Shown one piece after another: positions 12,093-64,000 of a stretch of DNA of 64,000 nt (position 1 is its first letter; the number at the start of each line of letters is the position of its first letter). Source of the stretch: Mycobacterium kiyosense (GTDB taxonomy: Bacteria; Actinomycetota; Actinomycetes; Mycobacteriales; Mycobacteriaceae); NCBI GenBank assembly GCA_021654635.1, contig AP025179.1:3286001-3350000 (forward strand). Reading direction: 5' to 3'. The notes under the pieces are model-generated. The model saw nothing but the letters and a program-made list of their open reading frames with translations, did no database searches and was not told the origin of the DNA. A program made the position numbers and the translations under genes.

Positions 12093-14729
<2,637 letters not shown>

Positions 14730-53928: not shown

Positions 53929-53978
53929 GCCTCGTCCGGCCGCTGCCGGCCCGCGCCTGACCAAGTAGCGTGACCAGC

Positions 53979-54656
53979 ATGATCACTGTTTCCGACTCCT
54001 ACACCGGACACGTCGACCCGGGCACCGCCGCCCAGCGCACGCTGCCCGGCGCGACGATCCTGAAGGCCTCGGTCGGCCCGATGGACAACAACGCCTACCT
54101 GGTGACCTGTTCCGCGACCGGAGACACACTGCTCATCGACGCCGCTAACGACGCCGACGCGCTGATCGACCTGATCCGCCGGCACGCCCCCAAGCTGGCG
54201 TTGATCGTGACCAGCCACCAGCACTTCGACCACTGGCAGGCCCTGGAGGCGGTCGCCGCCGCCACCGGAGCACCCACGGCGGCGCACAAGATCGACGCGG
54301 AGCCACTACCGGTCCGACCGGACCGTTTGCTGGCCAACGGCGACACGATCCAGATCGGTGAGCTCACCTTCGACGTCATCCACCTGCGCGGGCACACTCC
54401 GGGATCGGTGGCACTGGCCCTGGACGGGCCCGCTACCGGCGGCGTCACCCAGCTGTTCACCGGCGACTGCCTGTTCCCGGGCGGTCCTGGGCGTACAACA
54501 CGCCCGGAAGAATTCGAGTCGCTCATCGGAGACCTGGAAACCAGAGTTTTCGACCGCTACGACGACGCCACGGTGATCTACCCCGGCCACGGCGACGACA
54601 CCACACTCGGCGTCGAGCGACCGCACGTAGCGGAGTGGCGCGAACGCGGCTGGTGA
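53979..54656 (+). CDS. Metallo-beta-lactamase-fold hydrolase (Rv1637c-like)
   Basis: A 225-residue MBL-fold protein, glyoxalase II-like. Metal ligands seen in SHQHFDHW (the HxHxDH motif), the His in LRGHTPGSV, the Asp in FTGDCLF and the His of YPGHGDDTT. It likely hydrolyses a thioester or similar; substrate unknown. ATG 53979 is chosen because TAGCGT (53966-53971) ends 7 bases before it, giving a leaderless mRNA; GTG 53970 is the alternative. It diverges from uvrA. The mobile element begins right after its stop, where M. tuberculosis would have Rv1636. Confidence 0.88.
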   Translation: MITVSDSYTGHVDPGTAAQRTLPGATILKASVGPMDNNAYLVTCSATGDTLLIDAANDADALIDLIRRHAPKLALIVTSHQHFDHWQALEAVAAATGAPTAAHKIDAEPLPVRPDRLLANGDTIQIGELTFDVIHLRGHTPGSVALALDGPATGGVTQLFTGDCLFPGGPGRTTRPEEFESLIGDLETRVFDRYDDATVIYPGHGDDTTLGVERPHVAEWRERGW

Positions 54657-54722
54657 AGCGCGGCACTCTCGATACTGCGCTCGCCCGAGCGCCACGTCCG
54701 TCTACGCGGCCGACTGTCCAAC

Positions 54723-54742
54723 GCGCTACAGCCCTGTAGCGC
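54723..54742. repeat. Perfect inverted repeat at left edge of the element
   Basis: GCGCTACAG, CC, CTGTAGCGC: 9-bp arms, 2-bp centre. It lies 67 bp after the host hydrolase stop and 27 bp before the promoter of the integrase operon. Size and symmetry fit a repressor operator or a recombinase arm site. It is less likely to be a plain terminator, because the 2-base centre cannot form a good loop and no T-run follows. Confidence 0.6.
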
Positions 54743-54768
54743 AATGATTAAGCGTTCAAATTGCCTAT

Positions 54769-54796
54769 TTACCAACGTAATTCGGTGCAATAGGCT
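54769..54796 (+). promoter_or_regulatory. Candidate leaderless promoter of the integrase operon
   Basis: TTACCA (54769-54774), 16 bp, TAGGCT (54791-54796, fits TANNNT). The ATG of the next gene is 8 bases downstream at 54805, the normal distance for a transcription start, so the mRNA would begin at the start codon. No ribosome-binding site is present, which agrees. Confidence 0.5.
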
Positions 54797-54804
54797 CCTC
54801 GGCC

Positions 54805-55122
54805 ATGAGCCGCGACAATGACCTGAGCAATGCTTCTTGCCCGCCGATCCCTGCCGGTGCGGTCGCCGGTGACTGGGATATCTGGCACGACATCACAGGC
54901 CGCAGCTGCCCGCAGGACTGCTACCGGCCGCTGACGTGGTCGCAGCACGACGTCGGCGAGGTCAGCGTGACTGTCGCCGGCGCGCAGTACGGCAACGGCG
55001 AACTGTTCCGGTACGTGTTGCTCCGCCCCGACACCGGCGACGCCGAACTCACGGCACCGCAGGCCCGTCGACTGGCGGCTGCGCTGCTCGATGCGGCCGA
55101 CTCACTCGACGCTCTGACATGA
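54805..55122 (+). CDS. Small protein preceding the tyrosine recombinase
   Basis: A 105-residue protein with several Cys and Trp residues (NASCPPIP, GDWDIWHDITGRSCPQDCYRPLTW), a beta section (GEVSVTVAGAQ) and a C-terminal helix (APQARRLAAALLDAADSLDAL). The helix pattern is common in small actinobacterial phage proteins, but I know no function. It overlaps the integrase start by 4 bp (ATGA), so the two are made together. An excisionase or regulator is possible; no clear helix-turn-helix is visible. Confidence 0.7.
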   Translation: MSRDNDLSNASCPPIPAGAVAGDWDIWHDITGRSCPQDCYRPLTWSQHDVGEVSVTVAGAQYGNGELFRYVLLRPDTGDAELTAPQARRLAAALLDAADSLDALT

Positions 55123-56150
55123 CGGCGACCGAGGCCAGTCGGGCGCGGATCGCGCGCCGCCAAGCCGCAGCGCTGCAGGTGCAGATGGCGCGGCGCGGCA
55201 ATGTGTTCGAGCTGCGCGATGCCGGCGGCCCTGTGATCGCCGGCCGGTTGGAGACCATCGAGGCGTACCTGGTCGAGCGGTACCGCGGCGGCCGGCCGGG
55301 GCCGGCGCCGGCCCGCATCCCGGCGGCGTGGCGGCAACCCGTCGCCGACTACTGCCTGCACCTGGCGGCGGCAGGCCAGAGCGCGCGCACGGTCGACGCA
55401 CGCCGACACGCCGTGTCGCGCATTGCCCGCGGCGTGGGCCGGCCACCCGCTGAGGTGACCGGGCAGCTGCTCGTCGAATGGTTCGGCGGGCAGCAGTGGA
55501 AACCGGAGACGCGGCGGTTCTACCGGGCTGCGGCGCGTGAGTTTTTCCGCTGGGCACACCGGGCCGGCCGCGTGCCGGCCAACATCGGTGACGAGCTGCC
55601 GGCGGTGCGGATACCGCCGGCGGTGCCGCGGCCGGTGCCTGATGATGCCTGGCAGCAAGCCATTTCGGCCGCGGATGCGCGTGTCACGTTGATGATGCGG
55701 CTCGCGGCCGAGGCCGGCCTGCGGCGCGCCGAGGTCGCCCAGGTCCACACCAGCGACCTGGTCGACGGCGTCGGCGGGCCGCAGCTCGTCGTACACGGCA
55801 AGGGCGGCAAGACCAGGGTCGTGCCGATCAGCGACTCGCTGGCCGCGGTGCTGCGGGCCGGTGCCGCCGGCCACACCCCGTATCTGCCGGCCGTCGGTTG
55901 GCTGTTCCCGGCGTGGCCGGCCGGCGGGCACCTCACGGCCGAGCACGTCGGCAAGCTGGTCGCCGACGCGTTGCCGGCCGGCTGGTCGATGCACAAGCTG
56001 CGGCACCGCTTCGCCACCCGCGCCTATCGCGGCAGCCGTAACCTGCGCGCCGTCCAGGTGCTCCTCGGCCACACCTCGATAGCCACCACCGAGCGGTACA
56101 CCGCCGTCGACGACGACGAGATACGCGCTGCGGCGCTTGCCGCGCTATAG
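55119..56150 (+). CDS. int: Tyrosine recombinase / phage integrase
   Basis: A 343-residue integrase. N-terminal arm-binding region; core-binding SAM-like domain about 95-180 (YCLHLAAAGQSARTVDARRHAVSRIA); catalytic domain from about 190. The conserved set is complete: Arg in AEAGLRRAEV, Lys in HGKGGKTRVV, His292-x-x-Arg295 in HKLRHR, His318 in LLGHTSIATTERY and nucleophile Tyr327. It should cut and join at an attachment site, but no tRNA target is visible nearby. The stop converges with the minus-strand gene at 56145 by a few bases. Confidence 0.93.
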   Translation: MTATEASRARIARRQAAALQVQMARRGNVFELRDAGGPVIAGRLETIEAYLVERYRGGRPGPAPARIPAAWRQPVADYCLHLAAAGQSARTVDARRHAVSRIARGVGRPPAEVTGQLLVEWFGGQQWKPETRRFYRAAAREFFRWAHRAGRVPANIGDELPAVRIPPAVPRPVPDDAWQQAISAADARVTLMMRLAAEAGLRRAEVAQVHTSDLVDGVGGPQLVVHGKGGKTRVVPISDSLAAVLRAGAAGHTPYLPAVGWLFPAWPAGGHLTAEHVGKLVADALPAGWSMHKLRHRFATRAYRGSRNLRAVQVLLGHTSIATTERYTAVDDDEIRAAALAAL

Positions 56151-56714
56151 CTTCGGCGGCCTTGTGCCTCGCCACTGTTGCGGCGGCTGATCGGACAGGT
56201 CGTCGCGACGGTGCCACGTCACATCTATCCGGTCGGCTTCACCGCCGAACGGGGCAATCATGAACCGCGCGGAGCTGCGGCCGTCGACACGGTCGAACAC
56301 GGGATCACCTGCAACGCCCCCACCTGAAATCTTTACGCCAAACTTGGCGGTGTCGGTGACATTCCAGAGGTCGTACTGGTCACCTTGTGCGTGCCTCAAC
56401 TCCCAGGGAACGCCCTCGGCGCGCTCAGCATGTTCTTCAGCCATCCGGTTCTGCGCCTCGAGGGCCTCGGCCGACCGCTGGGCCGCCGCTGCGGCCTGGC
56501 GCTGCCAGGCCGCAGCTTCTTCGGCCGCCTTGGTTGCTCGTGCGGCGTTCTGTTCGGCTTTGGCCTCGTGAAGTTGCGCCGCGTCCTTTGCTTTTGTGGC
56601 GCGTCTGGCCTGAATCACTGCCACCGCGGCCGAGATGGCCGGTGCTACCAAAGCGGCCAGCGCGATCCAAGTCGGCACCTGCACGTTGCAGAGCGTAGTG
56701 CGCGGCACCGACAC
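56145..56714 (-). CDS. Membrane-anchored coiled-coil protein of the element
   Basis: A 189-residue protein, unknown. N-terminal membrane helix (WIALAALVAPAISAAVAVI), then about 60 residues of Ala/Glu/Arg-rich coiled coil (RRATKAKDAAQLHEAKAEQN onward), then a beta-rich C-terminal domain (QYDLWNVTDTAKFGVKIS and SSARFMIAPFGGEADRIDVTW). It faces opposite to the integrase beside it, a usual place for cargo or lysogenic conversion genes. An envelope role, for example blocking other phages, is only a guess. GTG start at 56714; a later GTG at the VQVPTW segment is also possible. Confidence 0.65.
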   Translation of the reverse strand: MSVPRTTLCNVQVPTWIALAALVAPAISAAVAVIQARRATKAKDAAQLHEAKAEQNAARATKAAEEAAAWQRQAAAAAQRSAEALEAQNRMAEEHAERAEGVPWELRHAQGDQYDLWNVTDTAKFGVKISGGGVAGDPVFDRVDGRSSARFMIAPFGGEADRIDVTWHRRDDLSDQPPQQWRGTRPPKL

Positions 56715-56740
56715 ACGTAGCGCGTTAGCCGCACATTTGT

Positions 56741-57079
56741 GTGGACACGCTGAGTCCCGCTGTCGCGCTCTTGGTCCGCGTGGCGAGCGACGGGATACTG
56801 GTCAGCGTGAGTGAGTCGGGTGGAACCCAGGCAGCGGAACGCTGGCTTGATCAGATGGACGCTGACGACCCGACGATTCGGGTGTACGACGTCCAGGCCA
56901 TCAGTGCGGCAGCCGGCCAGCTGCGCGACGCGGTCGCGGATGCGTTGGCCCGCGGCGTGCCGGCCCACGTGATCAGCCTGTCGATGGAGCTGCTCGAAGA
57001 TGACCTCAGCGTGCTGTTGCGGACAGGCGAGACGATTCCCGCGCGGCAGCTGCGGGACGAGCTGGGCCTCGGCGACTAG
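56741..57079 (+). CDS. Short hypothetical protein of the element
   Basis: Up to 112 residues; contains SGGTQAAERWLDQMDADDPTI, a helix (AISAAAGQLRDAVADALARG) and ELLEDDLSVLLRTGETIPARQLRDELGL. No family recognised. The start is uncertain: GTG 56741 or GTG 56807; the shorter one gives about 90 aa. It diverges from the TM/coiled-coil gene (26 bp apart) and converges with the protease-like gene, overlapping it by 4 bp. Confidence 0.5.
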   Translation: MDTLSPAVALLVRVASDGILVSVSESGGTQAAERWLDQMDADDPTIRVYDVQAISAAAGQLRDAVADALARGVPAHVISLSMELLEDDLSVLLRTGETIPARQLRDELGLGD

Positions 57080-57621
57080 GCCGGCGCAGTTCCTCCCAGC
57101 GCGAGAGCGCAGGCGATGACCTGGTCGGCCAGGACGGCCCGCTGGGCCGGTGTGGCGGTGTAGATGCGGGCGGCCAGACCGAGCAGCTCGGCCGCCGGCT
57201 CAGCGCCGCCGCCAACGGTCGGCGGCCCGGTGGGCAGCGTGAACACCCCGCCGAGCACCTCGCGCACCAGCTGGCCGGCGTCGTCGATGGTGTCGGTATA
57301 TTCCAGCTTCGCCTCACGCAGAACACGTTGCGCGACAAGGGTTCTCACGTATTCTCCGAGCGGGGTCGTTGACCACATGCCGCGGATGCGGAGGTTGTTC
57401 TTGCGGTCGAGCAGCGGCGTTCCTTCGCCGACGACCTGGCTTTCGCCGTGCCGTACAACGGTGATTGGCACCCGCTCGGGGAACGGTTGCCGCCACTGGC
57501 TCGGCCCGAGGATCACCCCGCCGGGCTCGCGGTGGCCGCCGGCGATGATGATGTCGAACGCGGCCTCGCCGCGCAGCTGCCTGCAGACGCCGCGGCGCGT
57601 CGCGCTGGCCGGCGCGGTCAC
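57076..57621 (-). CDS. Prohead-protease-like protein (HK97/U35 family pattern)
   Basis: A 181-residue protein. Its middle part follows the prohead protease pattern: FDIIIAGGHREPGGVILGPSQW, VPITVVRHGESQVVGEG with the expected His, then MWSTTPLGEYVRTLVAQRVLREAKLEYT, which matches the family's TPLGxxVxxLVxxGxLxxxSVxF stretch. The family's catalytic Ser position reads as Lys (EAKLEY), so activity is doubtful. In phiRv1 the protease comes before the capsid gene; here it follows it. GTG 57621 overlaps the gene before it by 4 bp (GTGA). Confidence in fold moderate. Confidence 0.6.
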   Translation of the reverse strand: MTAPASATRRGVCRQLRGEAAFDIIIAGGHREPGGVILGPSQWRQPFPERVPITVVRHGESQVVGEGTPLLDRKNNLRIRGMWSTTPLGEYVRTLVAQRVLREAKLEYTDTIDDAGQLVREVLGGVFTLPTGPPTVGGGAEPAAELLGLAARIYTATPAQRAVLADQVIACALALGGTAPA

Positions 57622-57869
57622 TCGTCGACAGGGGCGCCGTCGCCGGCCGGTGGGACCGGCCTGCCGTCCTCGTCGACCACCGGCGTGCCCGCCTCCGACA
57701 CCGCCTGAGGTACCCAGCCGGCTTTGCGCTTGCGGCCGCCGACCTCGTCGACCCATCCCGAGGCCAGCCACAGCTCCCCGACGTGGTCGGGCACCTCGGC
57801 GGTCTTGCCGGGCCGGTGGATCGCGCCGTCGTGGCAGACCTGAAACGGTTGCAGCACCTTGACTTTCAC
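57618..57869 (-). CDS. Small structural-region phage protein
   Basis: An 83-residue protein between capsid and protease-like genes: MKVKVLQPFQVCHDGAIHRP, EVPDHVGELWLASGWVDEVG, then a Pro/Glu/Asp-rich tail. The first half looks like a small SH3/beta-barrel; such proteins next to capsid genes are often head-completion or decoration proteins. Not certain. GTG start at 57869, 14 bp after the capsid stop. Confidence 0.65.
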   Translation of the reverse strand: MKVKVLQPFQVCHDGAIHRPGKTAEVPDHVGELWLASGWVDEVGGRKRKAGWVPQAVSEAGTPVVDEDGRPVPPAGDGAPVDE

Positions 57870-57883
57870 CGCAGACGCTCCTG

Positions 57884-59014
57884 TCAGCTCGTCGGTAGGC
57901 CGGTAATGGACAGCAGCGCCGCCGGCCGCTCGACGGCCAGCGCCAGGCGCTCCTCGCCGACGAACCGCACCAGGTTGTGCGTGAAGTCGTCGTTGGCGCT
58001 GCCGGTGCGCAGCGACAGGCCCTCACGCAGCAGGACGCGGCCGAACTTGCTGCTGTCGATGAGCAGTCCGGTGCCGGCGGCCTGCACCGTGGTGACGAGC
58101 ACCTCGACACCCCACAGCGAGCTCGCGGCGCCCTGGGTGGGATCGGGTGCGACCAGGTAGCGGTTCTGGCTGTCCTTCTCGCGGCGCATCGCCGACCAGG
58201 TGAGCGGGTTGAGCACCAGCAGGTCCGGCTCAGCCAGCGCCGCCCCGGTGCGCAGCGCCGCAATGCTCATCTCCACCGCGTCCAGCGTCGTGACGCCAGT
58301 CGCGTCCGCACTGTGGTCGTGCGTCAGGATTCCCGAGGTGTGCAGCAATCCGGTGAGGTGCCCGGTCGTGCCAGCGCCGCCCAACAGCTCGGCGTTCTCG
58401 ACGTCGATGATCTGCCGGAACAGCTCGGCCTGCACATAGCCGGTCCACGAGTCCCAGTCCGAAATCGCCTCGTACGTGGTGGCGGTGTGCGCGGCGATTT
58501 TCTGCGCGGTCGCGGTCATCTGCTGCGTGTTGAGCACCAGCTCGGGCTTGAGCCCGCCCTCGGCGACCACGGCCGCGGCGCCGGTCGTGCTGTTGTGCCT
58601 GATGTACTCGACCGACGGCGCGCTGATCGCCTGCACCGGCAGCCGGTCCAAAATCCGGTTCTCGTGCACCGGCCCCAAGACATTGGGCACCAGCTGCGCC
58701 GGCAGCAGCGAGTCAGGAGACGAGAACGCCTTGACTTGCAGCGACTGCCGCGACACCACGGCCTCATACAGCGCGCGCGACGACTCCTCGTCCAGGCCGA
58801 GCGGCGCCACCTGGCGTCCGGTCACCTGCTTGCCGACCACGGCGCCCTCGGCGGCTGCATAGCCGGCGTTGCGCCACTGCCGGGCACGCTGGGCGGTCGC
58901 GTCTTGGGCCGCGCGGGCCTCGGCGTCGTCCATGAACGCCGAAAACTCGGCATCGGTGATCTGCCCGGCCCGGTATGCGGCCGCCTTGGTCTTGACTTCC
59001 TCTGCGAGATTCAT
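57884..59014 (-). CDS. HK97-family major capsid protein
   Basis: A 376-residue capsid protein, shorter than the phiRv1 homologue Rv1576c (473 aa). The N-terminal about 85 residues are helical (NLAEEVKTKAAAYRAGQITDAEF) and probably a removable delta domain. The HK97 fold follows: SLLPAQLVPNVLGPVHENRILDRLP, then EYIRHNSTTGAAAVVAEGG (E-loop area), KIAAHTATTYEAISDW, and the P-domain with AELLGGAGTTGHLTGLL, ending in DDFTHNLVRFVGEERLALAVERPAAL. ATG 59014 follows a GGAGG ribosome-binding site. It shows the element can make its own shell. Confidence 0.88.
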   Translation of the reverse strand: MNLAEEVKTKAAAYRAGQITDAEFSAFMDDAEARAAQDATAQRARQWRNAGYAAAEGAVVGKQVTGRQVAPLGLDEESSRALYEAVVSRQSLQVKAFSSPDSLLPAQLVPNVLGPVHENRILDRLPVQAISAPSVEYIRHNSTTGAAAVVAEGGLKPELVLNTQQMTATAQKIAAHTATTYEAISDWDSWTGYVQAELFRQIIDVENAELLGGAGTTGHLTGLLHTSGILTHDHSADATGVTTLDAVEMSIAALRTGAALAEPDLLVLNPLTWSAMRREKDSQNRYLVAPDPTQGAASSLWGVEVLVTTVQAAGTGLLIDSSKFGRVLLREGLSLRTGSANDDFTHNLVRFVGEERLALAVERPAALLSITGLPTS

Positions 59015-59326
59015 CGCAAGATGCCTCCGAAATATTGTGCGCGGCAACGTATTCCGCGCAGCATGAATGAGGGGGTGCCCGAAACGGGCGATTTCGGCGG
59101 CGGCGACGTCGCTGAGCGGCGGTCGATCCGGTTCCGGCGGCGGTCGATTTCTCGGCGGCGGGCGAACCTTCACGGCGGCGGGTCAGCTCGGTGGCGGGCT
59201 CCTCACCGCGGGTACCCGACGGATCATCTCGGTCAGTCAGCGCCCACGGCTGCCCCCAGAATGACACGAATGAGATTTAGGGTGCAACCACCCTCGGCGG
59301 CGCGTGTTCGTCGCCGAGGGCCGCAC
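59015..59326 (-). other. 312-bp intergenic stretch upstream of the capsid gene
   Basis: No supported gene. It contains a strong GC hairpin (59291-59320) just after the stop of the 59327-59626 gene and should also hold a separate promoter for the capsid operon. The rest is a run of CGGCGG-type low complexity. Confidence 0.5.
59291..59320 (-). terminator. Candidate terminator after the terminase operon
   Basis: CCCTCGGCG (59291-59299) and CGCCGAGGG (59312-59320) form a perfect 9-bp stem with a 12-base loop, 7 bp beyond the stop at 59327. No T-run follows on the minus strand, as is common for mycobacteria. It would separate terminase from capsid expression. Confidence 0.55.
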
Positions 59327-59626
59327 TCAGCCCGATTCCGGCCCATCGGGATCGCCCGGCGGCGACGCATCTGCGATGGCCGCGTCCAGTTGCACCTCCA
59401 CCAACTCCGCGCGCGCAATCAACCACGCAGGGCCGGTGTCGTCGACAGACCACAGTCCCACCGTCGCCACAGCCAGCCGGTACAGCGCCATCTCCTCGAC
59501 CGTGTCGGCGTTCGCGCAAATAGCGGTGACCTGGTGCGCCATCGCCAACTCGTCGGAGCCAATGCCATCCTTCGCGCGCATCCGCGACACGAACTCCTCG
59601 CACAACCGGCGATCCTCGGCCCTCAA
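59327..59626 (-). CDS. Short acidic phage protein after small terminase
   Basis: A 99-residue protein: MRAEDRRLCEEFVSRMRAKDG, IGSDELAMAHQVTAICANADTVEEMALYRLAVATVG, ending in PPGDPDGPESG. Mostly helical; no family recognised. ATG 59626 overlaps the terminase stop by 4 bp (ATGA), so it is translated with it and may act in packaging. Confidence 0.7.
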   Translation of the reverse strand: MRAEDRRLCEEFVSRMRAKDGIGSDELAMAHQVTAICANADTVEEMALYRLAVATVGLWSVDDTGPAWLIARAELVEVQLDAAIADASPPGDPDGPESG

Positions 59627-60114
59627 TTCAGCAGCCTTTCGGGACCGAGCACGGGACGGCCCTGGCCGGCCCCGCCGGGCATGACGCCCTCGACCAGGCC
59701 GGCGCGGTCAGCCGGTGTCAACCCGAAACGAGCCGCCAGCGCCATGAGCTGCTTGAGCGCATCGTTACGCGCCGCCCAGTACACCGACTTGATCGGCTGC
59801 CCCTGGCTGCCTGCCCCGGTGTAGCCGTCCTGGCGAACCTTCGCCTCCAACGCCCGATAGTGCGCCACCGTCCGACAGAACGCCTCGAACAGCGTCAAGT
59901 CCCAGACTGCCAACACCTGCTTGTCGACCAAGTCGGGCGCCAGCTCACGCCACACCTTCGCCGCGGCGGCTCCCAGACCACGCGGCGGCTTCGTCAAGTC
60001 GACACCGTCAGCAGGTGGCGACGGAATCGGCTCGTCGCGGTTCAAGTCCCGCTCCCGACTGCCCGCCAGCAGCTTGAGCCGGTTCGGAGTGGCCTTGCGG
60101 CCAGTTCTCGCCAT
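59623..60114 (-). CDS. Phage terminase small subunit (P27 family)
   Basis: A 163-residue P27-type small terminase, equivalent to phiRv1 Rv1578c (156 aa). Start MARTGRKATPNRLKLLAGSRERDLNRDEP and LGAAAAKVWRELAPDLVDKQVLAVWDLTLFEAFCRTVAHYRAL are the family's characteristic stretches, near the N-terminus and the helical core. It recognises the packaging site and would need a large terminase from a helper phage, because none is present here. ATG 60114. Confidence 0.85.
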   Translation of the reverse strand: MARTGRKATPNRLKLLAGSRERDLNRDEPIPSPPADGVDLTKPPRGLGAAAAKVWRELAPDLVDKQVLAVWDLTLFEAFCRTVAHYRALEAKVRQDGYTGAGSQGQPIKSVYWAARNDALKQLMALAARFGLTPADRAGLVEGVMPGGAGQGRPVLGPERLLN

Positions 60115-60369
60115 AATCAATACCTTTCGGTCGTTTCGGCCCGACAATCGGCCTGGAAAATCGGAATTTGTTGGGTCCACGCCCACGGGGCCTTGACAAA
60201 GCGGTCGCGTCACAGGCGTCACGGCGATTGGACCTTCCCGCCGGGCGGCGGGGGCCGGCGGCCGCCCGGCGCAGCGGGCGCGGGGGCGGTCGAACAGATC
60301 GTGTCGGCCGCGGCAGCGGGCGCCGGGCAGCGCGGGGATGGGCACGCCGAGGACCAGGGCGGCGGATGG
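60115..60369 (-). other. 255-bp non-coding gap before the terminase gene
   Basis: Open frames here are Pro/Arg/Ala-rich readings typical of GC-rich shadows, so I call no gene. It includes an AT-richer piece (60115-60180) likely to be the promoter of the terminase operon, and a GC hairpin at 60240-60270. A packaging site is possible here, but not visible as such. Confidence 0.45.
60240..60270 (-). terminator. GC hairpin closing the early operon
   Basis: GCCGGGCGGC (60240-60249) and GCCGCCCGGC (60261-60270) make a perfect 10-bp stem with an 11-base loop. It lies 100 bp after the stop of the 60370-60582 gene on the minus strand. No T-run. Could end the early (integrase to 60370) transcript. Confidence 0.5.
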
Positions 60370-60582
60370 TCATGGCAGGAACCTGGCGAGGTGGCGGCCG
60401 CGGGGGGCGGCGGACTCGAGTTCGACGGGGACGACGGTGTGCACACCGATGCAGTGTGGCCCGCAGGGCGGCAGCTCGGCCGCGGCCTGGTGGGCCAGCT
60501 CGAGGCTGTCCCAGTAGGTCCACTCTGCGGTCAGTGTGCCGGTGCTCGGGTGCTCGCGGTGGCAGACCAGGACGGCGGTCAT
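60370..60582 (-). CDS. Small phage protein, unknown
   Basis: A 70-residue protein: MTAVLVCHREHPSTGTLTAEW, TYWDSLELAHQAAAELPPCG, PHCIGVHTVVPVELESA. Has Cys and His but no clear zinc motif. Coupled by a 4-bp ATGA overlap to the Zn-finger gene upstream, which supports it being real. Confidence 0.65.
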   Translation of the reverse strand: MTAVLVCHREHPSTGTLTAEWTYWDSLELAHQAAAELPPCGPHCIGVHTVVPVELESAAPRGRHLARFLP

Positions 60583-60755
60583 GTTGTGAGCCTTGTGAAG
60601 TGGACGATGCGGCCGCCGGGCAGCGGGCCGGTGTTACCGGCGAGGTTGTGGCAGTGCTGGCCGGGTTGGGCGTGGCACAGTTCGCAGCGGCGGCGCAGCG
60701 CGGCGGCGACCAGGGCGCTGACCGGGTTGGTGAGGTGTTCGCGTAGGTGGCTCAT
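60579..60755 (-). CDS. Small zinc-finger protein
   Basis: A 58-residue protein MSHLREHLTNPVSALVAAALRRR followed by CELCHAQPGQHCHN and GRIVHFTRLTT. C-x2-C...C-x-H is a compact zinc-binding pattern frequent in mycobacterial phage proteins. Start ATG 60755 overlaps the stop of the next upstream gene by 4 bp. Confidence 0.7.
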   Translation of the reverse strand: MSHLREHLTNPVSALVAAALRRRCELCHAQPGQHCHNLAGNTGPLPGGRIVHFTRLTT

Positions 60756-60874
60756 GGTGTCCGAATCCCGTTGAGCGAGTGCAGGTCTGCGTAGGTTCGC
60801 GGGTCGTCGGTGGCGGCGTGGTCCCATTCGGTCAGCTCGGCGACGGCGGCCCGCCATTCGGTGTCGTCGATCAT
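60752..60874 (-). CDS. Very small protein, 40 aa, inside the ATGA-coupled train
   Basis: ATG 60874 opens a 40-codon frame (MIDDTEWRAAVAELTEWDHA, then ATDDPRTYADLHSLNGIRTP) that ends in TGA overlapping the next gene's ATG by 4 bp. Its own ATG overlaps the Rep-like gene's stop in the same way. Coupling on both sides is the main evidence it is a gene. Acidic, two Trp, no known family. Confidence 0.6.
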   Translation of the reverse strand: MIDDTEWRAAVAELTEWDHAATDDPRTYADLHSLNGIRTP

Positions 60875-61863
60875 CGGGTTTGTCCTTGGAGTTGGCGTGC
60901 GTAGGCGAGTTGCTCATCGGTGAGTTCGCCCTCGATTGCTGGGTGGCTGCCACCGTCGCAGTGACAGACGCGGATGACGCGGCCTGGTTTGCCGTCGTTG
61001 TTGAGCACGATTCCGCGGTCTCGGCACCTGTTGCACAAATAGCGCGGCGCGGCGGCCGGCCCTGGCGGTTGCTCCGTGTCATCCGAGTCCATCCGTGCAA
61101 TCAGGCGCTCGGCGACGAGCAGGTTGCCGAGGGCCTTGGCTTCGGTCTTGCCGATTGGTGGCGGGTGCAACACGTCCCAGATTGCGCCGTATCGCTTTTC
61201 CCAGCGCGTGTAGTTGTGCCGAGCATCGCGGCATGGACCGCAGCTGAGTTCTGTGCCGGCAGGCATGTGCCTCGAGCAGTAGCGGGGCGGCTCGGCCGGA
61301 ATGCTCGACAGGTCGGCGGGTACGCCGCTGATGCGCTGCAGTTGTTTGCCGGTTTGCTCGATCGCCTTGGTGGGCTCGTCGACGAGCTCGGCGTCGACGG
61401 TGGGCGCTTCTCCCCCTTCTTCTGTTACTTCTCCAAGGTCTCTATAAGTAGTGCATCTGTCGGATTCGACAGGGGGGTGTGTCGATTTCGACAGACCATC
61501 GTACGAATTCGGCACATGGTCTGCCGGATTCGTATTGTGGCAGCTCGCAGGTTTGTCGGATTCGTATTCTGTCTGGTCAGAGGCGATTTTGTAAGATCGG
61601 CGTCGGTCCTCGCGCGGCGGGTGTTCTGCGACCTCGATTGAGTTTGCTAGACGCTCCAAGGCGCGCCGAATTGCGCTGCCGCTCAATCCGACTTCGCTGC
61701 CGAATTCGGAATAGGACACGCGCCACCAACGCACGCCGGCCACCGTCACGCGCCCAGGTCCGTTGGACTCACACCGATACCGAATGTGGGCCAGCACTAA
61801 GGCTGCCGCTGCGCCGTAACGCTCGACCTCGTCCGGCATGACCCTGACGAACGGCGGTCTCAC
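60871..61863 (-). CDS. Winged-helix replication-initiator-like protein with internal iterons
   Basis: A 330-residue protein. N-terminal about 95 residues resemble a winged-helix initiator domain of phage or plasmid type (FVRVMPDEVERYGAAAALVL; VSYSEFGSEVGLSGSAIRRALERLAN). A low-complexity linker (about 98-140; ESDKPASCHNTNPADHVPNS) coincides with five DNA repeats. The C-terminal part has Cys pairs (CSRHMPAGTELSCGPC and CNRCRDRGIV with a later CHC), probably zinc-binding. It occupies the place of phiRv1 Rv1582c (a primase-helicase), but no helicase motif is seen. GTG 61863 overlaps the upstream stop by 4 bp. A role in replication is inferred from domain, position and repeats. Confidence 0.7.
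   Translation of the reverse strand: MRPPFVRVMPDEVERYGAAAALVLAHIRYRCESNGPGRVTVAGVRWWRVSYSEFGSEVGLSGSAIRRALERLANSIEVAEHPPREDRRRSYKIASDQTEYESDKPASCHNTNPADHVPNSYDGLSKSTHPPVESDRCTTYRDLGEVTEEGGEAPTVDAELVDEPTKAIEQTGKQLQRISGVPADLSSIPAEPPRYCSRHMPAGTELSCGPCRDARHNYTRWEKRYGAIWDVLHPPPIGKTEAKALGNLLVAERLIARMDSDDTEQPPGPAAAPRYLCNRCRDRGIVLNNDGKPGRVIRVCHCDGGSHPAIEGELTDEQLAYARQLQGQTR
61458..61567. repeat. Five iteron-like repeats, candidate replication origin
   Basis: Plus-strand copies of a 14-bp element: TGTCGGATTCGACA (61458), TGTCGATTTCGACA (61480), GTACGAATTCGGCA (61501), TGCCGGATTCGTAT (61522), TGTCGGATTCGTAT (61554). The CGRATTCG cores are 22, 21, 21 and 32 bp apart, close to whole helical turns, so bound proteins would line up on one face. 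The area is more AT-rich than its flanks. It lies within the linker of the Rep-like gene, as origins of some phages and satellites do. Confidence 0.65.
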
Positions 61864-62198
61864 GTTGCGGCCTTCGCGGTGTGCAGCCCGCACGCCAGGC
61901 CAGGTTCCTTGACGCGCTGACGGCAGGGTTGGCCAGCCGAAGTGGGTCGCCCGCAGCGCAGACTGTCACCCCAGATGCGCTCGCGCATGGTGGCCGGCAG
62001 CCGCCCAAGCCCCTCGTGTGGCTGCGATGGGTCTCCGTGTTGCGCGCGCCCCCCGGCGAGGGCGGTCTTGCTTACCAGCCACAGCACCTCGTCGCCGGCG
62101 TTGGTCACACAGACGGCGGCCAGATAGTCGGGTGCGCCGACGTCGCACAGGCAAGCTGAGCGTTCGTAGTCGATCAGGCTGCCGGGCCGGTCGCTCAC
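61860..62198 (-). CDS. Small zinc-binding phage protein
   Basis: A 112-residue protein with CLCDVGAPDYLAAVCVTNAGDE near the N-terminus and a C-terminal CGRPTSAGQPCRQRV...ACGLH motif, a Cys/His cluster widespread in actinobacterial phages. Occupies the place of phiRv1 Rv1583c. Probably binds nucleic acid. Overlaps both neighbours by 4 bp (start ATG 62198). Confidence 0.72.
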   Translation of the reverse strand: MSDRPGSLIDYERSACLCDVGAPDYLAAVCVTNAGDEVLWLVSKTALAGGRAQHGDPSQPHEGLGRLPATMRERIWGDSLRCGRPTSAGQPCRQRVKEPGLACGLHTAKAAT

Positions 62199-62410
62199 GC
62201 TGCGCCGCCGCGCAGAATCGCGGCGATGCGCTCGCGCTGCTCGGCGGTCAGCGGCGGCGCCTGGGCGACGACCCTCGCGACGTGCTCGGCCAGTTGGTGG
62301 GCACGGAGCGCCCGGCGGGCCTCGACCAGCTCCGGGTCGTCGGGCTTACGGTCGCGGGACAGCGCACCGATGCGAGCGCGATAATGTGCGGTTTCCGATG
62401 ACAAAGCCAT
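62195..62410 (-). CDS. Small helical protein at the phiRv1 excisionase position
   Basis: A 71-residue charged helical protein: MALSSETAHYRARIGALSRDR, LVEARRALRAHQLAEHVARVV, AQAPPLTAEQRERIAAILRGG. In phiRv1 the directionality factor Rv1584c (73 aa) lies at this place relative to integrase, so this is a candidate recombination directionality factor; I do not recognise the sequence itself. ATG 62410 has GGAGG 9 bases upstream and follows the only large gap in the early region. Confidence 0.6.
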   Translation of the reverse strand: MALSSETAHYRARIGALSRDRKPDDPELVEARRALRAHQLAEHVARVVAQAPPLTAEQRERIAAILRGGAA

Positions 62411-62538
62411 CGCCAGGGCCTCCAAGAGCGCGAGAGATTAACCCTCGCGCTGGCAAGGCTGTCACCGAGCGACATCCGGCCCTTGTTGGCGCTCACCGAC
62501 GCTGTTACGGGGCGCCCGACGTACCGGTCGTTGGCGCT
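62411..62538 (-). promoter_or_regulatory. Early promoter/operator region of the element
   Basis: 128 bp with two notable features. An inverted repeat AGCGCGAG (62427-62434) / CTCGCGCT (62444-62451) with a 9-base centre containing a TTAATC -10-like hexamer on the minus strand. Direct repeats GTTGGCGCTCAC (62485-62496) and GTTGGCGCTTCAC (62530-62542), 45 bp apart. Suggests a repressor operator over a minus-strand promoter for 62410-60370, and possibly recombinase or RDF arm sites. Confidence 0.5.
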
Positions 62539-62892
62539 TCACAGGCTAGCAGCGAGATTCTTAAGACTGATGGAGGTTTGGCCGTGCGCCGCCCACGTGT
62601 CGAGGAATGCCGCTAGCGACTCGTACCTCGCGGGCGTCGTCTGGCCGTGGCATTCAAACAGCATTCGGTACCGGACGTTGCTCGCGTCGCTCGGCGTGAG
62701 CAGATCGGAGCCTGGTTCGATTTCCACTGTGCGACCGTCGATTTCGCGCAGAGCTTGCAGAGAAATGCATCGCCGCCCGTTTTCGGGTGGCACTGGCCGC
62801 CATCCCCTGGTGTCGCAGATCAGCGCCCCGAGCTCGTAAGTGCCGCGGGAGTGCACGGCGTCGTCGCAGAAAACGCGGATGCGGTCGATCAT
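62539..62892 (-). CDS. Phage protein next to serine integrase (Rv1585c position)
   Basis: A 117-residue protein: MIDRIRVFCDDAVHSRGTYELGALI, DTRGWRPVPPENG, EIDGRTVEIEPGSDLL, YRMLFECHGQTTPARYESLAAFLD. Mixed alpha/beta, no clear family; phiRv1 has Rv1585c in the same place. Start ATG 62892 overlaps the integrase stop by 4 bp, so it is translated along with it. Confidence 0.7.
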   Translation of the reverse strand: MIDRIRVFCDDAVHSRGTYELGALICDTRGWRPVPPENGRRCISLQALREIDGRTVEIEPGSDLLTPSDASNVRYRMLFECHGQTTPARYESLAAFLDTWAAHGQTSISLKNLAASL

Positions 62893-64000
62893 CGGTCCCA
62901 CTCGAATCTGACGCTGCTGGGGTCGAAACCTGGACCGGGCCGGGTGCGGTCGATAATCACGCGCAGTCGCAGCGCCTGCAATATGGCGCGGCGCTGGGAT
63001 ACGGCCATCTCGTCCCATCGTTCTCGAGCTCGCGGGCCGGCCAGCGGTTGCACCGCGCTGATGTCCAGCGAGACGACGGACTCGGCGCGGCGCCGTTCGG
63101 CCTCATCGAGCTCGGGCTGCAGGCGCGCGGTGATTCGGCGTAGCTGGTCGGCGCTGATGGCGCCCTCGGCGAACGCGTCGGCCGCTTCGCTCAGACGTTG
63201 ATTCAGCTCGCGGGCACGGTCGGACCACCGCCGCGCCTCCGCATCATCGCCGAGTAGCCAGTCCAGTGCGTCAGGCTGAGCCAGGCGCGCGATGACGACC
63301 TCCCTGACGACCTCGTCGACCGACGGCTCGGAGCGGCCGACGCAGCCCTTATTGCTGTCGCAGATGTACAAATCGAGCGGCTTGCCGCGCTGCCCGCGGC
63401 GCGTGACGGCACGCAGCTTCTCTCCACACACCCCGCACTCGCCTATCCCCCAGCTGAGCAGATGCCGGCGGGCGCCGGGGCGGGCGGTGCCGTTGACTCG
63501 GCGCCCGGGCTCGGTGAGCAGCGCAACGACTTTCTCGTGCTTGGCGCGGTCAACAATCGGCGGCCAGCAGCCGTCGAAACGTTCCTCATCGGGAAGGCCG
63601 CGATGGTGAACACGTTGCGCAATATTCGATTCTCGGATGGCGAGCTTCTTGACCGACGTCTTACCCCACCGCGCCGAGTTGGGCGCCGGCTCGCCGCGCT
63701 GGTTGAGCGACTCGGTGATGCCGCGGAGGGTGTCACCAGCGAGCAGACGGTCGACGACCTCACGGACAACACCGGCCTGTTGCGGGTGTTCGACCCAGGT
63801 GGCGTCAGCCCCGCGGCCCCTCTTCTGCCACCCGTAGCCGAGGTCGCTGGATGGCCGGCCTGAGCGGGCACGTCGCGCGGCCGCGGCTGTGACGCGCTCG
63901 GACTTGATTTCAGATTCCCAGGTTGCCAACGCCCCTTGAATGTCGACCCAGGAGCGGCCGGCCGCCGTTGATAGGTCGTAGTCGCCGCCCTGGGCCTCGG
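62889..64000 (-). CDS. Large serine integrase, N-terminal catalytic domain outside window
   Basis: At least 370 residues, open to the window end. Seen: end of the resolvase domain and long helix (LSTAAGRSWVDIQGALATWESEIKSERV), recombinase domain (VVREVVDRLLAGDTLRGITESLNQRG), zinc ribbon (CGVCGEKL...YICDSNKGCVG), coiled coil (RARELNQRLSEAADAFAEG) and C-terminal domain. This is the layout of large serine integrases such as phiRv1 Rv1586c (469 aa). The nucleophile Ser lies beyond base 64000. It should drive directional integration with a separate RDF. Confidence 0.92.
   Translation of the reverse strand, partial: EAQGGDYDLSTAAGRSWVDIQGALATWESEIKSERVTAAAARRARSGRPSSDLGYGWQKRGRGADATWVEHPQQAGVVREVVDRLLAGDTLRGITESLNQRGEPAPNSARWGKTSVKKLAIRESNIAQRVHHRGLPDEERFDGCWPPIVDRAKHEKVVALLTEPGRRVNGTARPGARRHLLSWGIGECGVCGEKLRAVTRRGQRGKPLDLYICDSNKGCVGRSEPSVDEVVREVVIARLAQPDALDWLLGDDAEARRWSDRARELNQRLSEAADAFAEGAISADQLRRITARLQPELDEAERRRAESVVSLDISAVQPLAGPRARERWDEMAVSQRRAILQALRLRVIIDRTRPGPGFDPSSVRFEWDR

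What the first reader, a model, noticed from the sequence alone, without database searches (positions are those of the whole stretch)
54657..64000. phiRv1-like element resembles a capsid-forming phage satellite
Seen: own major capsid, small terminase and protease-like gene, an iteron/Rep module and integrases, all in about 9.3 kb. Not seen: large terminase, portal, tail, lysis or DNA polymerase genes. Known: capsid-forming PICIs of other bacteria carry exactly this set and borrow tails and packaging motors from helper phages. Inference: this element, and by extension the phiRv1/phiRv2 class, may be mycobacterial satellites rather than degraded prophages. Limits: the right end lies outside the window.
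Basis: partly seen in the sequence, partly recalled or inferred. Interest (0 to 1): 0.8.

Follow-up and report, generated by a model that had tools for sequence, protein, structure and literature searches.

The report
Capsid-carrying phage satellite without packaging motor
This 9.9-kilobase piece of a mycobacterial chromosome looks like an intact mobile element that encodes its own virus shell but not the motor, portal and tail needed to fill and deliver it, so it probably travels by borrowing those parts from a phage.

Summary
Observation: mostly right. I fetched the missing right end. The element is 9,870 bp, from window 54,474 to 343 bp past the window end, inside an MBL-fold hydrolase gene whose 3' end it replaces. 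It encodes a capsid protein (MCP), small terminase (TerS), iteron/Rep module, tyrosine recombinase and serine integrase; no large terminase (TerL), portal, tail or lysis gene was found. The protease-like gene is divergent, its presumed catalytic serine replaced.

A decaying prophage is unlikely: MCP dN/dS is 0.14, and it falls in a 23-row capsid clade (support 100/100) in which no TerL or portal was found near any capsid.

Interpretation: partly right. Capsid-forming PICIs do not carry "exactly this set"; they also have TerL, portal and connectors. The satellite idea for phiRv1/phiRv2 was published in 2023.

New: integrase and att arms match K5 mycobacteriophages. Nine elements of about 10-12 kb use this site: four carry an MCP, three HNH plus TerL, one a portal, one none of these; no two of MCP, TerL and portal were found together. 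I read these as "split-kit" satellites, each supplying one head part. Mobilisation is inferred, not shown.

The parts
53970..54656 (+). Host MBL-fold hydrolase gene used as attachment site; its last part (from about 54474) is element-borne
   Evidence: PF00753 E=2.6e-15; 145-nt 77% repeat of its 3' end at the far junction; intact gene next to the USP gene in relatives
54474..54478 (+). Left crossover core TTCCC (attL side); the right core lies at L006:14344, just past the window end
   Evidence: Homologous P and P' arms in phage Larva and in sibling elements; core-to-core size 9,870 bp
54805..55122 (+). Small ORF, 105 aa, unknown
   Evidence: Only a sub-threshold DUF6907 match; 53% identical homologue in the M. 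asiaticum element
55119..56150 (+). Tyrosine recombinase, 343 aa
   Evidence: PF00589 E=2.5e-22, phrog_1 E=9.2e-35; dN/dS 0.17 against M. asiaticum over 297 aa
56145..56714 (-). Cargo-slot protein, 189 aa, unknown
   Evidence: No match below E=0.02 in Pfam, PHROGs or PADLOC
56741..57079 (+). Cargo-slot protein, 112 aa, unknown
   Evidence: No match below E=0.09
57076..57621 (-). Divergent prohead-protease-like protein, 181 aa, presumed catalytic serine replaced by lysine
   Evidence: tblastn with Eureka protease E=1.2e-5; phmmer to phrog_2753 relatives; alignment A4
57618..57869 (-). Small protein next to the capsid gene, 83 aa (phrog_2616-like)
   Evidence: phrog_2616 E=2.6e-5, DUF7210 below cut-off; homologues beside MCP in several relatives
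57884..59014 (-). Major capsid protein, 376 aa
   Evidence: PF05065 E=2.5e-26, phrog_10 E=2.1e-40; 93% identical in M. asiaticum
59327..59626 (-). Unknown 99-aa protein between TerS and MCP
   Evidence: 76% identical in the M. asiaticum element; no family match
59623..60114 (-). Small terminase subunit, Terminase_4 type
   Evidence: PF05119 E=1.1e-21; 46% identical to phage Eureka and others
60190..60206 (-). Candidate cos-like site, weak
   Evidence: GACCGCTTTGTCAAGGC against Eureka GACCGCTTGTCAGGC; 15 of 2000 shuffles of the intergenic stretch as good (stretch chosen after seeing it); not significant element-wide, 65 of 200
60370..60582 (-). Unknown 70-aa ORF
   Evidence: No family match
60579..61100 (-). 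Phage zinc-finger protein (true start probably downstream, as the ORF overlaps Rep)
   Evidence: PF24623 E=6.4e-6 at residues 129-171
60871..61893 (-). Replication-initiator-like protein
   Evidence: phrog_3171 E=2.9e-5; dN/dS 0.29
61458..61564 (.). Iteron cluster inside the rep gene (probable origin)
   Evidence: window; M. asiaticum locus: 6 matches, 0.38 expected
61860..62198 (-). Conserved 112-aa protein
   Evidence: 85% identical in M. asiaticum, dN/dS 0.14
62195..62425 (-). Conserved 76-aa protein, candidate recombination directionality factor (inferred)
   Evidence: tblastn matches in L007 and in L117-L124, weak in L141; none in the 4.2-kb piece L125
62539..62892 (-). Unknown 117-aa ORF
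   Evidence: No match below E=0.09
62889..64000 (-). Large serine integrase, 477 aa; N-terminus continues to L006:14322, 322 bp past the window end
   Evidence: phrog_95 E=5.8e-96; 76-77% identical to K5-type phages

Best explanation
An intact 9.87-kb phage satellite that supplies its own capsid protein and small terminase and takes motor, portal and tail from a helper phage. Shown from sequence: it sits in the 3' part of an MBL hydrolase gene between hybrid att sites and restores the gene's end; it carries a K5-type serine integrase, Rep with iterons, TerS, MCP and a protease-like protein; no TerL, portal or tail was found in it or beside its capsid relatives. Inferred: helper infection triggers excision by the integrase with a small directionality factor; Rep amplifies the circle; the element's TerS hands its DNA to the helper's large terminase; the element's capsid forms a small head on the helper's portal; helper tails complete the particle. 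It belongs to a family of about 10-12 kb elements at this attB that carry, in place of one another, a capsid, a terminase module or a portal.
For: Both ends and an empty site defined: in 6 of the 8 same-genus relatives with a full-length hydrolase match (L084-L091) USP lies within 100 nt of the gene (junctions in 8, 23, 103). No recognised structural gene beyond MCP, TerS and the protease-like gene. Purifying selection against M. asiaticum: MCP dN/dS 0.14, tyrosine recombinase 0.17, Rep 0.29. Capsid tree of 56 rows: 23-row clade, support 100/100, 0 of 23 loci with TerL or portal found nearby; the 18 phage rows fall outside both TerL-less clades. Own genome: 4 phrog_10 capsid places (two contain stop codons), 0 phrog_9 TerL, 0 portal by three families. 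A TerS of this family lies within 1.5 kb of a capsid without TerL nearby at 11 places, own included. Integrase and att arms match phage Larva. Nine elements at the same att site with exclusive head modules.
Against: No excised circle, induction, particle or transfer was observed. The IMG/VR scans gave only a copy of the M. asiaticum element, two K5-size phage genomes and one integrated sibling, no free satellite. The M. asiaticum element, 93% identical in capsid, has no TerS match in its locus, so TerS redirection cannot be essential to the whole lineage. The 83-aa gene beside MCP has dN/dS 0.74. The protease-like protein lacks the presumed serine. A capsid that must fit a foreign portal is mechanistically demanding. 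The cos-like site is not significant element-wide.
Confidence: 0.8

Rival explanations
1. Degraded prophage: remnant of a normal phage that lost TerL, portal, tail and lysis genes and is decaying.
For: The gene set is incomplete for a phage; the protease-like gene has lost its presumed serine; TerS, protease-like protein and MCP all have distant matches in the head module of phage Eureka (46%, 27%, 25%); the annotation literature calls such elements prophage-like or defective (PMC3986857 passages).
Against: Intact ends and ORFs; dN/dS 0.14 in MCP; the same absence at 23 of 23 capsid-clade loci, one of them (G102) on a 7.2-kb contig; similar size of siblings with different gene content.
Confidence: 0.1
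2. Domesticated or stand-alone capsid island: the capsid serves a host or element role (encapsulin-like, or interference with infecting phages) and the element moves by other means.
For: No portal match and no phrog_9 TerL match in the own genome; two sibling elements carry PADLOC defence-candidate genes.
Against: A TerS gene in the capsid cluster and HNH-TerL modules in siblings at the same att site point to DNA packaging.
Confidence: 0.08
3. Ordinary capsid-forming PICI whose TerL or portal is too divergent to recognise.
For: Several short ORFs are unassigned.
Against: Apart from ORFs antisense to assigned genes, the longest unassigned ORF has 189 aa, too short for TerL or portal; gene space is filled.
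Confidence: 0.02

Closest known systems
phiRv1/phiRv2 class of mycobacterial prophage-like elements (candidate PICIs, PMC10654092)
   Same: About 9-11 kb (sizes in PMC3986857), serine or tyrosine integrase, capsid gene; already proposed as PICI-like
   Different: Different att site; this element has two recombinases. Sequence homology to phiRv1 itself not tested here
Capsid-forming PICIs (cf-PICIs)
   Same: Own capsid protein and small terminase, integrase, small size
   Different: No TerL, portal or head-tail connector found; protease-like gene divergent. It would need the helper's motor and portal as well as tails
Subcluster K5 mycobacteriophages (Larva, AlleyCat, Edugator)
   Same: Integrase 76-77% identical; attP arms homologous, with a 43-residue hydrolase C-terminus beside the integrase in Larva
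   Different: Complete 61-63 kb temperate phages; no Larva capsid, terminase, portal or tail query matched this element at E 1e-3
Phage Eureka (Kostyavirus; cluster E is recalled)
   Same: Its TerS (46%), head maturation protease (27%) and MCP (25%) match the element's three head genes
   Different: A complete 76-kb phage with TerL, portal and tail genes
SaPI-type PICIs
   Same: Some encode a TerS that redirects a helper's packaging (PMC10690885 passage)
   Different: They use helper capsids, often resized; this element encodes its own capsid protein
Streptomyces satellites MulchRoom and MiniFlayer (PMC10690885)
   Same: Actinobacterial satellites with their own capsid genes
   Different: They carry TerL and portal too and use virulent helpers

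Membership tests
Capsid-forming PICI | Own major capsid protein | tested here: met
Capsid-forming PICI | Small terminase subunit | tested here: met
Capsid-forming PICI | Large terminase subunit | tested here: not met
   Complete element sequence; in the own genome no phrog_9 match at E<=1e-6 and only four weak, distant phrog_2 matches
Capsid-forming PICI | Portal protein | tested here: not met
   PF04860, PF05133, phrog_104 all 0 in the own genome
Capsid-forming PICI | Head maturation protease | tested here: inconclusive
   Divergent relative with presumed serine replaced
Capsid-forming PICI | Head-tail connectors and HNH nuclease | tested here: not met
   No connector or HNH match among the called ORFs of the element; very short or divergent connectors could be missed
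Capsid-forming PICI | Mobilised by a helper that supplies tails | not testable with these tools
   Needs infection experiments
phiRv1/phiRv2 class | About 10 kb, integrase plus capsid gene, no tail genes | tested here: met
   criterion of integrase plus MCP from PMC10654092
phiRv1/phiRv2 class | Sequence homology to phiRv1 capsid or integrase | not tested
   No identified phiRv1 sequence was in hand
Degraded prophage | Relaxed selection or broken genes in what remains | tested here: not met
   dN/dS 0.14-0.45 in seven of eight compared genes, 0.74 in one 83-aa gene; no stops in the eight pairs
K5-type integration system | Same integrase family, core and P/P' arms at the MBL hydrolase gene | tested here: met
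   that K5 phages integrate there in a host was not tested

The most novel reading that the evidence does not exclude
One integration system (K5-phage-type serine integrase, MBL hydrolase attB) carries a family of 'split-kit' satellites, each of which supplies one core part of the virion head machinery (capsid protein; or HNH-TerL motor module; or portal) and hijacks a helper for the rest. Satellites sharing one docking site thus take over virion assembly at different steps by swapping the head module.
Probability: 0.45. Interest if true: 0.75.

Novelty: new variant of a known kind. Interest (0 to 1): 0.55.

Why it matters
The idea that phiRv1-like elements are satellites is in print but rests on a simple criterion, integrase plus capsid. 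Here the absence of motor and portal appears as a conserved trait of two deep capsid lineages, which speaks against decay by phylogeny. A usable handle follows: the phages that share this integrase and att design grow on the laboratory host M. smegmatis. The exclusive head modules raise an open question that can be tested: can a foreign capsid assemble on a helper's portal, and can a lone terminase module or a lone portal be enough to move a satellite?

Tried and rejected
- tRNA or tmRNA att site: none in the window or L006. Rfam: no match. Promoter and terminator scans at shuffle level.
- Plasmid origin: only two short Rhodococcus hydrolase-gene matches.
- Free particles in IMG/VR: the capsid alignment scan gave 1 relative (L140, the M. 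asiaticum element), the integrase scan 3 (two genomes of K5 phage size and the integrated sibling L141); neither L140 nor L141 has exact terminal repeats of 12-200 nt.
- cos probes: Eureka cos in the own element 65 of 200 shuffles as good; 15 of 2000 in the TerS upstream stretch only, chosen after seeing it. Larva cos in L117, L118, L119 not significant element-wide (82, 196, 143 of 200); in the HNH-TerL intergenics 6, 1093 and 45 of 2000. L120 scores 34, 1 of 1000 shuffles, but 1 of 40 background loci (L080) also scores 34; ten elements and two probes were tried. A pattern scan of IMG/VR for the motif gave 24 stretches, not followed.
- Protease by PF04586: no match in this element; the genome's only match is at 5,088,053.
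- The batch PHROG scan of L117-L120 (79 ORFs of 150 aa or more) showed 25 of 40 families; 15 were not seen. That of L121-L123 and nine window proteins (64 rows) showed all 19.
- Capsids of L121 and L122 gave no phmmer hit with this MCP and were left out of the tree; L123's was not entered. Of the places, one stronger relative (G070:C6:3128) and most weak ones were not fetched.
Full report
WHAT IS THERE. The element was read in full after fetching the chromosome past the window (G000:C1:3336001-3355000 = L006; window position = L006 position + 50000). A 145-nt stretch at 77% identity occurs twice, at L006:4510-4654 and 14380-14524. The left copy is the end of an MBL-fold hydrolase gene (PF00753). 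The right copy is the same gene end without its 5' part. In 6 of the 8 same-genus relatives with a full-length match (L084-L088 and L090; not L089 or L091) the intact gene stands within 100 nt of a universal stress protein gene, the gene that follows the right copy here; L086 and others show the native sequence that the own right copy has. So the element replaced the gene's end with its own version. From core TTCCC to core TTCCC it is 9,870 bp, window 54,474 to L006:14,344. GC content is like the flanks: 68.5% against 67.9% and 68.6%.

GENES. Listed in parts. MCP, TerS, tyrosine recombinase and serine integrase have strong HMM matches, the Rep-like protein a modest one. The iterons lie inside the rep gene and recur in the rep gene of the M. 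asiaticum element. The last 343 bp past the window hold only the integrase start and its att arm. Apart from ORFs antisense to assigned genes, the longest unassigned ORF has 189 aa, too short for TerL or portal.

THE PROTEASE-LIKE GENE. The ORF 57076-57621 starts at a GTG that overlaps the stop of the preceding gene. Its own PHROG match is weak (phrog_2753, E=0.29). But the Eureka head maturation protease finds it by tblastn (27%, E=1.2e-5), and four ORFs (L056, L044, L051, L075) that phmmer links to its C-terminal 132 aa at 2e-9 to 6e-6 match that protease family at 1.5e-20 to 5e-29. In the alignment the serine of L056, L044 and L075 is lysine in this element and in M. asiaticum. That this serine is the nucleophile is recalled, not from a call.

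DECAY IS UNLIKELY. Against the M. asiaticum element, dN/dS is 0.14 (MCP), 0.17 (tyrosine recombinase), 0.29 (Rep), 0.14 (112-aa protein), 0.27, 0.31 and 0.45 for three small genes, and 0.74 for the 83-aa gene; no stops in the eight pairs. A search of 248 genomes of the genus found capsid relatives in 77. I fetched 40 neighbourhoods and asked by whole-genome HMM search where TerL (phrog_2, phrog_9), portal (PF04860, PF05133, phrog_104) and protease (PF04586) lie, in 41 or 47 genomes. In a tree of 56 capsids (18 phage or prophage rows, 36 TerL-less rows, 2 ambiguous) this MCP sits in a 23-row clade with support 100/100: 22 TerL-less rows and one ambiguous row on a 7.2-kb contig. A second TerL-less clade has 15 rows (14 plus one ambiguous, support 99/99). 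All 18 phage rows lie outside both. Over the 54 unambiguous rows 2 changes suffice on the quick tree; with the ambiguous rows counted as a third group the table gives 4, and the phage rows form one side of a branch in 28% of bootstrap trees, so the number of origins is open. The five mycobacterial loci with TerL and portal beside the capsid (G032, G176, G242, G030 split over two contigs, G099) serve as positive control. Limits: 12 of the phage rows were chosen from the hits listed among 556 matching records and Eureka; database phages were labelled as phages by their records. Many loci lie in draft genomes, and divergent TerL or portal families could be missed.

THE HOST GENOME. It is one contig, 98.5% complete. 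It has four phrog_10 capsid places, two of them with stop codons inside the match, no phrog_9 TerL at E<=1e-6, no portal by three families, and four weak phrog_2 matches (2e-6 to 7.5e-4) far from any of the capsids. No resident helper is apparent. A TerS of the PF05119 family lies within 1.5 kb of a capsid with no TerL or portal found nearby at 11 places including the own one; G102 and G070:C6 lie near contig ends, and G070:C6 and one G064 place were not fetched.

LINK TO PHAGES. The integrase is 76.3-76.7% identical to twelve records of nine phages, among them Larva, AlleyCat and Edugator, which PMC5679794 places in K5; the next listed record has 31%. Larva gp38, annotated hydrolase, 43 aa, beside the integrase, is the hydrolase C-terminus; the left junction of the element matches its P' side and the right junction its P side. 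King et al. 2017 (PMC5679794, section 3 read) noted a 43-residue protein related to hydrolase C-termini in K5 phages; that section does not call it an att site. In the listings of two searches I saw no paper naming this attB; that is no proof of absence. The head genes point elsewhere: TerS 46%, protease-like 27% and MCP 25% to phage Eureka, none to the seven Larva head and tail queries; the MCP is at most 36% identical to any listed phage. The element is a mosaic.

ONE SITE, DIFFERENT HEAD PARTS. The integrase occurs in 10 of 396 genus genomes at E<=1e-80, own included. Eight elements have both ends in hand; G341 and G354 are cut by contig ends. IMG/VR adds an integrated metagenome element, L141. 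Of these nine: MCP in four (own; L121; L122 with a weak scaffold match; L123 with protease and connector); TerL with an HNH gene in three (L117, L118, L119; the L119 HNH by blastp kinship to that of L117), each with a small ORF between them that resembles Larva TerS, clearly only in L118 (48% over 27 aa, E=1.9e-6; 0.006 and 0.001 in the others); a portal in one (L141, phrog_104 E=1.7e-104); none of these in one (L120). Two of MCP, TerL, portal together: 0 of 9. No tail gene among the families seen. Six sizes were measured, 9.6-10.9 kb; L123 and L141 are about 10.7 and 10.6 kb and L118 about 11.9 kb by tblastn coordinates. Of ten cargo-type proteins scanned, those of L117 and L120 match PADLOC defence candidates strongly. 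L141 was checked less fully: five of its nine ORFs of 140 aa or more were scanned by PHROG, one is the integrase, and the other three have at most 189 aa.

HOW IT MOST LIKELY WORKS. Shown from sequence: docking site, gene-end restoration, replication module, capsid and TerS, and no motor, portal or tail found. Inferred: induction by a helper, TerS handing the DNA to the helper's TerL, the own capsid making a small head on the helper's portal, and helper tails. The missing TerS in the close M. asiaticum element warns that the TerS step may vary.

RELATION TO KNOWN SYSTEMS. cf-PICIs as described in PMC10690885 (passages) carry TerL, portal, connectors and more; these were tested here and not met, so this is not filed as a cf-PICI, though it may work as a satellite with its own capsid. 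PMC10654092 (passages and section 9) defined candidate mycobacterial PICIs as integrase plus MCP, included phiRv1/phiRv2, and stated that induction by phages has not been demonstrated. PMC3986857 (passages) lists mycobacterial elements of about 8-12 kb with differing head gene subsets. Passages of PMC12597102 and PMC11389934 on cf-PICIs were also read. The satellite reading is therefore known. The TerL-less capsid clades, the K5 att link and the exclusive modules at one attB I did not see in the listings of searches, which cover open-licence papers only.

Noticed in passing
L120:8711-8734 (sibling element in G099): Near copy of the Larva cos site (score 34; 1 of 1000 shuffles, but 1 of 40 background loci, L080, also reaches 34) in the element that has neither capsid, terminase nor portal: possibly a cos-only satellite.
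   Followed up: partly
L040 (G000:C1:3838001-3858000): Second capsid gene of the same genome (3847778-3848863) with a 53% identical piece of the Larva tape measure protein nearby; perhaps a prophage remnant.
   Followed up: partly
G000:C1:5914801-5915676 and 4374123-4374980: Two further capsid-like places in the same genome, both with stop codons inside the match; surroundings not read.
   Followed up: no
L007:5613-15692: M. asiaticum sister element between a yifB/comM-like gene and a dprA-like gene (names by eye), with a different serine integrase (29%), no TerS match, and P450-like and trypsin-like cargo ORFs (by eye).
   Followed up: partly
L117:9930-10949 and L120:9453-11296: Cargo matching PADLOC defence candidates (PDC-S35 with TIR matches; PDC-M41A and B) in sibling elements; the matching slot of this element holds two unknown genes (56145-57079).
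   Followed up: partly
G004:C1:3710380-3710517: Extra copy of the hydrolase 3' end about 1.5 kb past the intact gene: possible remnant of a lost element.
   Followed up: no
L144 (IMG/VR, 8,779 bp): Another short contig with a portal 89% identical to that of L141; not read.
   Followed up: no
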